Under the pieces are notes generated by a model, which was given only the letters and a program-made list of their open reading frames with translations, ran no database searches and was not told where the DNA came from. From contig JAPKZT010000286.1 of assembly GCA_026393655.1 (NCBI GenBank), forward strand, positions 1-32,828: DNA of 32,828 bases, given 5' to 3'. The position numbers were made by a program, and so were the translations under genes. Position 1 is the stretch's first letter, and every line of letters begins with the position of its first letter. Below are positions 3,050-10,238 of the stretch, in pieces. This DNA is from Actinomycetota bacterium (GTDB taxonomy: Bacteria > Actinomycetota > Acidimicrobiia > Acidimicrobiales > Ilumatobacteraceae).

Positions 3050-3137
3050 GGAACGGTGGCAGAGTGGACAAACGCATCCGCCTTGAAAGCGGACGGCTGT
3101 AAAAGGCCCGGGGGTTCGAATCCCTCCCGTTCCGCCA
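3050..3137 (+). tRNA. tRNA-Ser(TGA)
   Basis: GGAACGG/CCGTTCC acceptor, long variable arm, anticodon loop CTTGAAA (TGA), GGTTCGAATCC T-loop, encoded CCA. Confidence 0.93.
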
Positions 3138-3191: not shown

Positions 3192-3266
3192 GGAGAGGTG
3201 CCAGAGCGGCCGAATGGGGCGCCCTGCTAAGGCGTTGTCCGGGTAAACCGGACCGTGGGTTCAAAT
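3192..3266 (+). pseudogene. 3'-truncated tRNA-Ser(GCT)
   Basis: GGAGAGGTGCCAGAGCGGCCGAATGGGGCGCC-CTGCTAA-GGCG... with variable arm TCCGGGTAAACCGGA and GTGGGTTCAAAT. The 3' T-stem (CCCAC), acceptor strand (CCTCTCC) and CCA are absent; GCCGACTTCAG follows instead. Confidence 0.88.
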
Positions 3267-3822
3267 GCCGACTTCAGTACGGGCTGCTACTTGCAGTTCG
3301 TTTCATACGGCTAAAGCAAATGATTCGTGGACTCGAATTGCGGCCCGTTTTGATGTCTCATTGAAAAAAGTACTTACTTTAAATAATGCGCGTCAATCCA
3401 CAAAAATAATGATCGGTGACCAAATCTGTATTTCTGATGCGCCGCCACCGACTACTACTACAACTACCACCGCAACAACGACGAGCCAACCACCGATTGT
3501 CGTGCCGAAAGCGACTACGAAGCGAAATGAAGTAATCGCGATAATACGCGAGATCTGGCCAGATGAGTATGAAGAAAATGCTTTATTTGTTGCTCAACGC
3601 GAAAGCAACTTTGTTCCAACTGTCATTGGCGGCACAAATAATTGTTGCATTGGATTATTTCAGATGTTTTATTCGGTGCATAAAGCATGGCTTGTTGATA
3701 TTGGAATTACAGAGCCGTCACAGCTTTTTGATGCGCGGTTAAACACGCTTGCGGCTTTCACGCTGTTTAAGCGAAACGGTAAATCATGGAAACCATGGTG
3801 GACAAGCTCATGGAGACCTTAA
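3265..3822 (+). CDS. LysM + lytic transglycosylase (SLT-like) protein, apparently N-terminally truncated
   Basis: LysM-like TAKANDSWTRIAARFDVSLKKVLTLNN...IMIGDQICI, Pro/Thr linker, then AQRESNFVPTVIGGTNNCCIGLFQ transglycosylase-like motif. It starts at the tRNA fusion point with only a residual signal-peptide end (PTSVRAA). Confidence 0.7.
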   Translation: MPTSVRAATCSSFHTAKANDSWTRIAARFDVSLKKVLTLNNARQSTKIMIGDQICISDAPPPTTTTTTTATTTSQPPIVVPKATTKRNEVIAIIREIWPDEYEENALFVAQRESNFVPTVIGGTNNCCIGLFQMFYSVHKAWLVDIGITEPSQLFDARLNTLAAFTLFKRNGKSWKPWWTSSWRP

Positions 3823-3847: not shown

Positions 3848-3923
3848 GCGCTCGTAGCTTAATGGATAGAGCATCTGATTACGGATCAGAAGGTTGGCGG
3901 TTCAAGTCCGTCCGAGCGCGCCA
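3848..3923 (+). tRNA. tRNA-Arg(ACG)
   Basis: GCGCTCG/CGAGCGC acceptor, anticodon stem-loop CTGAT-TACGGATCAG (ACG), GGTTCAAGTCC, encoded CCA. Confidence 0.94.
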
Positions 3924-8248: not shown

Positions 8249-9442
8249 ATGAAATTCGCTCAGGATGTAGTTGTAGTTGGTGGCTGCGGTCATGTTGGGC
8301 TTCCACTTGCGATTATCTTGGCGTCCAAATCTTTAAAAGTTGTTGCCTTTGATACGAATTCTCAAGTTGTTGAGAAAGTTAACAGTGGCCAGATGCCGTT
8401 TGATGAACCTGGTGCGCCTGAAGTTCTGAAACAAGTTTTAGCCGCGAAGTCGTTTTTTGCATCAAGCGATAAGCAAAGCGTTGCTAGCGCCGAACATGTC
8501 GTCGTCGTTATCGGCACACCCGTTGATGAACATTTAAACCCAGATCCTGAGGCAGTGCCAAATGCGGTGACTTGGTTGCTCGATGTGCTGCAAGACGGTC
8601 AGCATCTTGTGTTGCGTAGCACGGTTTATCCGGGAGTGACAAAACTTGTCGAAAAAGTCATCGCCAAAAGTGGCAAGAAAATTGATGTCAGTTTTTGCCC
8701 TGAGCGCATCGCCGAAGGCAAGGCAGTCGAAGAATTGATTGCATTACCGCAAATAATTTCGGCAAGAACACCAGCGGCAGTTGAACGCGCTAAGAAACTA
8801 TTTAGTTGTCTCACTCAAAATGTGATTGTTGTCAGCCCTGAAGAAGCAGAACTTGCAAAATTGTTTACAAATACTTGGCGTTACATTAAATTTGCGGCTG
8901 CTAATCAGTTGTACACAATCGCCAATGACTTTGGTGTCGACTTTGAGCGAGTCCGTCATGCAATCACCCATGATTACCCTCGAGCGGCAGATATGCCGGG
9001 CGCAGGCTTTGCTGCTGGTCCGTGTCTATTTAAAGACACGATGCAACTCGCAGCGTTCAACAACAATAATTTTACTCTCGGTCATTCAAGCATGATGATC
9101 AACGAAGGTCTGCCGCTATATCTTGTTTCGCGAATTGAAAAAAACTTTGACTTGTCAAAAATGACCGTCGGAATATTAGGCATGGCGTTCAAGGGTGAGA
9201 GCGATGACATTCGTTCAAGTTTGTCGTATAAATTGAAGCGAATTTTGCGGTTCAAAGCAGAATCGGTTCTGTGCGCAGACTCACTTGTGCACGATGACAC
9301 GTCGCTAGTTTCAGAAGATGAACTTCTCAAGCAAGTTGATTTAGTTGTGATTGGTGCGCCTCATCGTCGTTACGCATCCTTAAAGATTTCTCAGCCAGTG
9401 ATCGACATCTGGAACATTCGCAAGCAAGGCGTACTGATCTGA
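8249..9442 (+). CDS. Nucleotide-sugar (UDP-glucose/UDP-ManNAc type) dehydrogenase
   Basis: VVVVGGCGHVGLPLAIILASKSLKVVAFD, IGTPVDEHLNPD, LRSTVYPGVT, FCPERIAEGKAVEE, GPCLFKDTMQL. Confidence 0.9.
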   Translation: MKFAQDVVVVGGCGHVGLPLAIILASKSLKVVAFDTNSQVVEKVNSGQMPFDEPGAPEVLKQVLAAKSFFASSDKQSVASAEHVVVVIGTPVDEHLNPDPEAVPNAVTWLLDVLQDGQHLVLRSTVYPGVTKLVEKVIAKSGKKIDVSFCPERIAEGKAVEELIALPQIISARTPAAVERAKKLFSCLTQNVIVVSPEEAELAKLFTNTWRYIKFAAANQLYTIANDFGVDFERVRHAITHDYPRAADMPGAGFAAGPCLFKDTMQLAAFNNNNFTLGHSSMMINEGLPLYLVSRIEKNFDLSKMTVGILGMAFKGESDDIRSSLSYKLKRILRFKAESVLCADSLVHDDTSLVSEDELLKQVDLVVIGAPHRRYASLKISQPVIDIWNIRKQGVLI

Positions 9443-10238
9443 CGCCAAGAGTATCTATTGTTATTCCCGTCTATAACGAGGGTGAAAACGTTGAGCCTGT
9501 GTTGCGTCGCTTATTTGAAGCCGTTGATATTGAAGCTGAAGTATTGGTCGTTTACGACGAAGCACATGACACGACGATTCCAACACTGACAAAATTGCAA
9601 CTTGAGTTTCGAAACTTACGCTCAGTCCAAAACACTTACGGTCGTGGGCCGGCCAAGGCAATTAAATTTGGCATTGACCAGGCAACTGCCCAAGTATGGC
9701 ATTGACCAGGCAACTGCCCAAGTAGTTGTTGTAACGATGGCCGACGGATGCGACGACGCTTCGCAAATTGCAATCTTGACTCGATTAGTCGAGCGCGGAG
9801 TCGTTGTTTGCCTGCGCGAGCCGATACGCAAAAACCGGCCAGCAAGTTGGTGGCCCACTGATCAAAGGCCTGATGTCAAAAATTGCAGGATTAAGTCTCT
9901 ACTACGGTGCCAGAGTTGGCACTCGTGATGCAACGAATTCGTTTAAGGCATATTCAACAAAATTCGTTCGTGAGGTCGAAATTGAAAGTGATAAAGGTTT
10001 TGAGATCGGCATTGAACTTGTTGCTAAGGCGCGGCGATTTCGCCAGCCAGTTGCTGAGATTCCCACAATTTGGCTGGATCGATCTTTTGGTGTGTCAAAT
10101 TTCAAGATAGCAACTTGGCTACCGCGTTATTTGAAATGGTACTGTTATGCGTTCGGTACAAAGAAAGTGTTGTCTAAATCAAATGTCAAAAGTTCTCCTC
10201 ACTGGTGCGTCGGGTTTTATTGGTGGTTATGTAGTTGA
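9439..10238 (+). pseudogene. Family 2 glycosyltransferase disrupted by a 28-bp tandem duplication and a second frameshift
   Basis: GT2 motifs are spread over three frames: VSIVIPVYNEGENVEP...VVYDEAHDTTIP (frame of ORF 9499), VVVTMADGCDDA (frame of 9602), SRYAKTGQQVGGPLIKGLMSKIAGLSLY...DATNSFKAY (frame of 9804). Confidence 0.85.
9669..9724 (+). repeat. Perfect 28-bp tandem duplication (TGGCATTGACCAGGCAACTGCCCAAGTA x2)
   Basis: Copies at 9669-9696 and 9697-9724 are identical. Confidence 0.98.

What the first reader, a model, noticed from the sequence alone, without database searches (positions are those of the whole stretch)
3192..3300. tRNA-Ser(GCT) truncated in its T-loop and fused to a LysM/transglycosylase ORF that lost its signal peptide
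Seen: a normal type II tRNA-Ser(GCT) runs to GTGGGTTCAAAT, then continues as GCCGACTTCAGTACGG instead of CCCAC-CCTCTCC-G-CCA. The ATG of ORF 3265 is created at the junction, and the ORF starts at PTSVRAA, which looks like the tail of a signal peptide. Inference: one deletion (or an assembly misjoin) removed the tRNA 3' end, the spacer and the start of the secreted protein gene. AGC/AGT codons are used in this window, so an intact tRNA-Ser(GCT) must exist elsewhere or the junction is artefactual.
Basis: partly seen in the sequence, partly recalled or inferred. Interest (0 to 1): 0.72.

Follow-up and report, generated by a model that had tools for sequence, protein, structure and literature searches.

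The report
Probable assembly join broke a tRNA
A serine tRNA gene here stops in its T-loop and runs straight into a cell-wall enzyme gene because 67 bases are missing that every readable relative has; similar join-like lesions elsewhere in this draft genome make an assembly error more likely than biology.

Summary
tRNA-Ser(GCT) runs intact from 3192 to T60 (3266) and then continues into a LysM/SLT gene whose ATG (3265-3267) spans the junction. In the 12 relatives of the same genus where both genes can be read, the tRNA 3' end is complete and the same enzyme gene follows with a full signal-peptide core. The five nearest all have 194 nt from tRNA start to the NDSW motif; the window has 127. So exactly 67 bp are missing: 16 nt of tRNA plus 51 nt. 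There is almost no spacer: in the relatives the signal-peptide core begins 1-2 nt after CCA.

The lesion is most likely an assembly or consensus artefact (about 0.72). The tRNA is needed for AGY codons. The same contig and genome carry other unique lesions: a 28-bp exact tandem duplication plus one inserted T in a gene intact in relatives, a 20-bp duplication that shifts the frame of another gene, and a 27-bp duplication inside tRNA-Glu. Other drafts of the genus break or misjoin at this same tRNA. A real recent deletion, with another tRNA copy in unread contigs, is not excluded.

By-product: in this genus the enzyme's reading frame is open through the tRNA, and its start codon is unclear.

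The parts
3192..3266 (+). tRNA-Ser(GCT), nt 1-75 of 91; lacks the 3' strand of the T-stem, the acceptor 3' strand and CCA
3265..3268 (+). junction AT|GC between tRNA T60 and the LysM/SLT gene; creates an ATG; 67 bp missing relative to five relatives, at most 1 nt (T) microhomology
3265..3822 (+). LysM + SLT transglycosylase ORF (185 aa) that lacks most of its signal-peptide core; the rest is intact
3050..3137 (+). intact tRNA-Ser(TGA) just upstream; same order in relatives
3848..3923 (+). intact tRNA-Arg(ACG) just downstream; same order in most relatives
9669..9724 (+). exact 28-bp tandem duplication, unique to this contig, breaking a glycosyltransferase-like gene (second join-like lesion in the same contig)
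9800..9810 (+). single extra T (near 9807) in the same gene, absent from all seven relatives aligned there

Best explanation
The fusion is most likely an artefact of the draft assembly or its consensus. The real chromosome probably has, as in all readable relatives, an intact tRNA-Ser(GCT) directly followed by a LysM/SLT transglycosylase gene with a full signal peptide, and 67 bp were lost where two assembled pieces were joined. Shown: the missing 67 bp, intact relatives, other join-like lesions in this genome, and repeated assembly breaks at this tRNA in other drafts. Inferred: that no cell carries this junction, and that the cause is the tRNA sequence shared identically by co-occurring species.
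For: (1) All 12 same-genus loci where tRNA and gene can both be read have the complete tRNA 3' end, including BS4 (L069), whose contig name style (tig00002064) suggests a long-read assembler. (2) tRNA-Ser(GCT) is needed for AGY codons, 24.8 per 1000 codons here; every matching genome of the genus has one copy, and no intact copy or 3' half is found in this genome. (3) Other unique lesions in the same genome: exact 28-bp tandem duplication plus one extra T in a gene of this contig that is open in relatives; exact 20-bp duplication shifting the frame of a conserved gene on C45; exact 27-bp duplication inside tRNA-Glu(TTC) on C107 where 15 relatives have the uninterrupted sequence. All three have zero junction homology; in 540 kb of relatives no tandem duplication of 20 bp or more has a period that is not a multiple of 3. 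(4) The same tRNA is a trouble spot in other drafts: contigs of G005, G016 and G028 end at or inside it, G001 has an N gap just upstream, and G009 shows a different abnormal join at nt 2 that loses about 311 bp including tRNA-Ser(TGA). (5) The 91-nt tRNA is identical in seven species. (6) The downstream ORF shows no decay, and both flanks match relatives equally well (86.4% and 86.9% to G006).
Against: No reads could be examined. A short-read assembler normally needs reads across a junction, and zero-homology joins are not the usual graph error. The assembler and sequencing platform of this genome are unknown. The tandem duplications are insertions, the tRNA lesion is a deletion, so the kinds differ. 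Coding density of the genome is normal.
Confidence: 0.72

Rival explanations
1. A real, very recent 67-bp deletion in this strain. The cell survives because another tRNA-Ser(GCT) gene lies in the unassembled or withheld part of the genome; the transglycosylase is made from the new ATG without its signal peptide and is not exported.
For: The genome is only 90.9% complete in 344 contigs and contigs under 3 kb are masked (11 of 61 sampled); other essential tRNAs (His, Ile, intact Glu) are also absent from the hits, so absence proves little. The junction is clean and the flanks continuous.
Against: Every matching genome of the genus shows a single copy. The downstream ORF shows no decay. Three other unexplained lesions occur in the same assembly.
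Confidence: 0.17
2. A minority variant or pseudo-copy: the population or a duplicated region holds both the intact and the deleted allele, and the assembler chose the deleted path.
For: Draft with 8% estimated contamination; strain mixtures are usual in such bins (general knowledge).
Against: No second copy of the locus in the readable genome.
Confidence: 0.08
3. The tRNA is functional: its 3' part is supplied from elsewhere (split or trans-spliced tRNA), or the T-loop junction marks a site-specific recombination event.
For: The break is exactly at T60|C61; an element border on C242 lies at the same tRNA position, and the tRNA-Glu duplication also ends at T60.
Against: No 3' half (TTCAAATCCCNCCCTCTCC) anywhere in the readable genome; the right side of the junction is the ordinary neighbouring gene, not an element; no suitable pairing partner near by.
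Confidence: 0.03

Closest known systems
Ordinary bacterial tRNA-Ser(GCT) gene (type II tRNA)
   Same: Identical over nt 1-75 to intact copies in seven relatives
   Different: Lacks nt 76-91
LysM + SLT (lytic transglycosylase-like) exported protein, conserved downstream of this tRNA in the genus
   Same: Domains, gene order and the mature sequence, up to 94% identical
   Different: Signal-peptide core missing; start codon at the junction
Assembly join errors in draft and metagenome-assembled genomes
   Same: Short deletion or exact short tandem duplication at a breakpoint, breaking conserved genes
   Different: Cannot be proven without reads

Membership tests
functional tRNA-Ser(GCT) | complete cloverleaf with acceptor 3' strand | tested here: not met
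   ARAGORN reports none at 3192; nt 76-91 absent
functional tRNA-Ser(GCT) | GCT anticodon and serine-type long variable arm | tested here: met
   nt 1-75 identical to intact relatives that ARAGORN calls Ser(gct)
LysM/SLT exported enzyme | LysM and SLT domains | tested here: met
   PF01476 and PF01464 above cut-off
LysM/SLT exported enzyme | signal peptide | tested here: not met
   hydrophobic core of about 17 codons missing relative to relatives; no signal-peptide predictor was available
assembly artefact | junction absent from relatives | tested here: met
   all readable same-genus loci have the full tRNA 3' end
assembly artefact | similar lesions elsewhere in the same assembly | tested here: met
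   28-, 20- and 27-bp exact duplications and +1 T
assembly artefact | no raw reads across the junction | not testable with these tools
   no reads available
split or trans-spliced tRNA | separate 3' half gene in the genome | tested here: not met
   no match to the 3' half in the readable genome; masked small contigs remain unread

The most novel reading that the evidence does not exclude
In this genus the transglycosylase reading frame is truly continuous with the tRNA: translation starts inside tRNA-Ser(GCT) at a non-AUG codon, so that tRNA sequence encodes the charged start of the signal peptide, or tRNA 3' maturation releases a leaderless mRNA beginning at UUG. The frame is open through the tRNA in all relatives, the hydrophobic core begins 1-2 nt after CCA, and two relatives lack the UUG.
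Probability: 0.12. Interest if true: 0.55.

Novelty: not a real feature. Interest (0 to 1): 0.17.

Why it matters
If the junction were real, a cell would have lost its apparently only tRNA for AGY serine codons, which should be lethal without a second copy. Showing that it is probably a join error keeps a false 'fused tRNA' out of the record and flags this genome's other lesions. The by-product, an exported protein whose reading frame abuts and is open through a tRNA gene across a genus, is a small testable question about translation starts and tRNA maturation in freshwater actinobacteria.

Tried and rejected
Second tRNA-Ser(GCT) or a free 3' half in the own genome: none readable. Mobile element at the junction: rejected, since the downstream gene is the normal neighbour in relatives. 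The T60 break on C242 looked like a second case, but G021 shares part of the insert (92% over 625 bp), so it is probably a real element border. Junction string in viral contigs: no match. Scaffold N-gaps as the cause: N runs in the sample are whole masked contigs under 3 kb, not gaps. Coding density is normal, so the assembly is not globally poor. A 28-bp repeat on C58 lies in no clear gene and was not counted. The fold of the truncated transcript is unremarkable, z = -1.28.

Full report
What is there. Window 3192-3266 reads as nt 1-75 of a 91-nt tRNA-Ser(GCT), up to T60 of the T-loop. From 3267 the sequence is a LysM/SLT transglycosylase gene; the ATG at 3265-3267 spans the junction and is the first start of a 185-aa ORF. 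ARAGORN finds tRNA-Ser(TGA) upstream and tRNA-Arg(ACG) downstream but nothing at 3192. Pfam finds LysM and SLT in the ORF.

Comparison with relatives. The window is contig C54 of a 2.18-Mb draft in 344 contigs, 90.9% complete with 8% estimated contamination. Named relatives are Acidimicrobiia drafts, one labelled acIV. Thirteen of 29 genomes of the genus, own included, hold the protein. The 12 others all show a tRNA-Ser(GCT) with complete 3' end directly upstream. In G004, G006, G008, G020 and G025 the distance from tRNA start to the NDSW motif is 194 nt; in the window it is 127. The missing 67 bp are tRNA nt 76-91 and 51 nt after CCA. Only one base (T) of microhomology is possible. Flanks on both sides match G006 at 86.4% and 86.9%, so no foreign DNA is joined.

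Is it real? tRNA-Ser(GCT) should be essential: AGY codons are used at 24.8 per 1000 here, and the other serine tRNAs found (TGA, GGA, CGA) read UCN. No second copy and no 3' half is readable. That absence is weak evidence. Among the 38 tRNA-family hits I also find no His, no Ile and no intact Glu tRNA, and contigs under 3 kb are masked (11 of 61 sampled).

Other lesions in the same genome. At 9669-9724 of this contig a 28-bp exact tandem duplication, and near 9807 one extra T, break a gene whose counterpart in G021 is a 217-aa open frame; seven relatives lack the extra T, and the matching stretch is about 29 bp shorter in six. On C45 an exact 20-bp duplication shifts the frame of a conserved gene that reads like an alpha-galactosidase by eye. 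On C107 an exact 27-bp duplication disrupts tRNA-Glu(TTC); 15 relatives have the uninterrupted sequence. In 438 kb of this genome (24 kb of it masked) these three are exact two-copy duplications of 20-28 bp with no extra homology. In 540 kb of relatives no tandem duplication of 20 bp or more has a period that is not a multiple of 3. This pattern fits faulty joins better than evolution, though the tRNA-Ser case is a deletion and the others are insertions.

Why this tRNA? Its 91 nt are identical in seven species, so assemblers may tangle here. Other drafts agree: contigs of G005, G016 and G028 end at or inside it, G001 has an N gap just upstream, and G009 shows a different abnormal join at nt 2 that drops about 311 bp including tRNA-Ser(TGA). 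The link to shared sequence is my inference. That the tRNA-Ser and tRNA-Glu lesions both have a boundary at T60 is not explained.

By-product. In the relatives the signal-peptide core begins 1-2 nt after CCA, and spacing to the mature protein varies only in multiples of 3 (97, 100, 103, 112 and 142 nt). Third codon positions vary most from the first codon on in the trio G008, G020, G025: [4, 2, 11]. The frame is open through the tRNA but offers no ATG, GTG or TTG there, and in several species a stop lies just upstream of the tRNA. TTG at CCA+2 is the usual candidate start; G015 and G009 have TTT instead. In another genus (G036) GTG and ATG stand at CCA+2 and +5; in G029 there is a normal leader. 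Leaderless mRNAs with UUG starts exist in the actinobacterium P. acnes, about 3% of its leaderless mRNAs (PMC3848588). Which start is used is unknown.

Verdict. Observation confirmed; deletion versus misjoin is not settled by sequence alone, but a misjoin is favoured.

Noticed in passing
L013-L025, L069-L075 (relatives): The LysM/SLT reading frame is in phase with and open through tRNA-Ser(GCT); the signal-peptide core starts 1-2 nt after CCA, and two relatives lack the TTG start.
   Followed up: partly
window 9669-9724 and about 9807: Exact 28-bp tandem duplication and one extra T break a glycosyltransferase-like gene that is open in relatives.
   Followed up: yes
L114, about 1482-1581 (G000 C107): tRNA-Glu(TTC) interrupted by an exact 27-bp tandem duplication ending at T60, the same tRNA position as the window junction.
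   Followed up: partly
L162, about 8504-8543 (G000 C45): Exact 20-bp tandem duplication shifts the frame of a gene that reads like an alpha-galactosidase.
   Followed up: partly
L067, 494-1761 (G000 C242): A tRNA-Val fragment ending at T60, then about 1.1 kb, a piece resembling a tmRNA 3' end, and an intact tRNA-Val(GAC); part is shared with G021, so probably an integrated element.
   Followed up: partly
L115, 2658-18066 (G020 C9): A cluster of sugar-catabolism and ABC-transport genes sits between the LysM gene and tRNA-Arg(ACG), with two partial copies of the LysM gene 3' end near its far end.
   Followed up: partly
L066, 388-461 and 738-811 (G000 C228): Two similar tRNA-like sequences about 350 bp apart with eight-base anticodon loops (ARAGORN type unknown).
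   Followed up: no
L121 (G009 C256): Different abnormal join at nt 2 of tRNA-Ser(GCT): about 311 bp missing, including the end of pheA and tRNA-Ser(TGA).
   Followed up: yes
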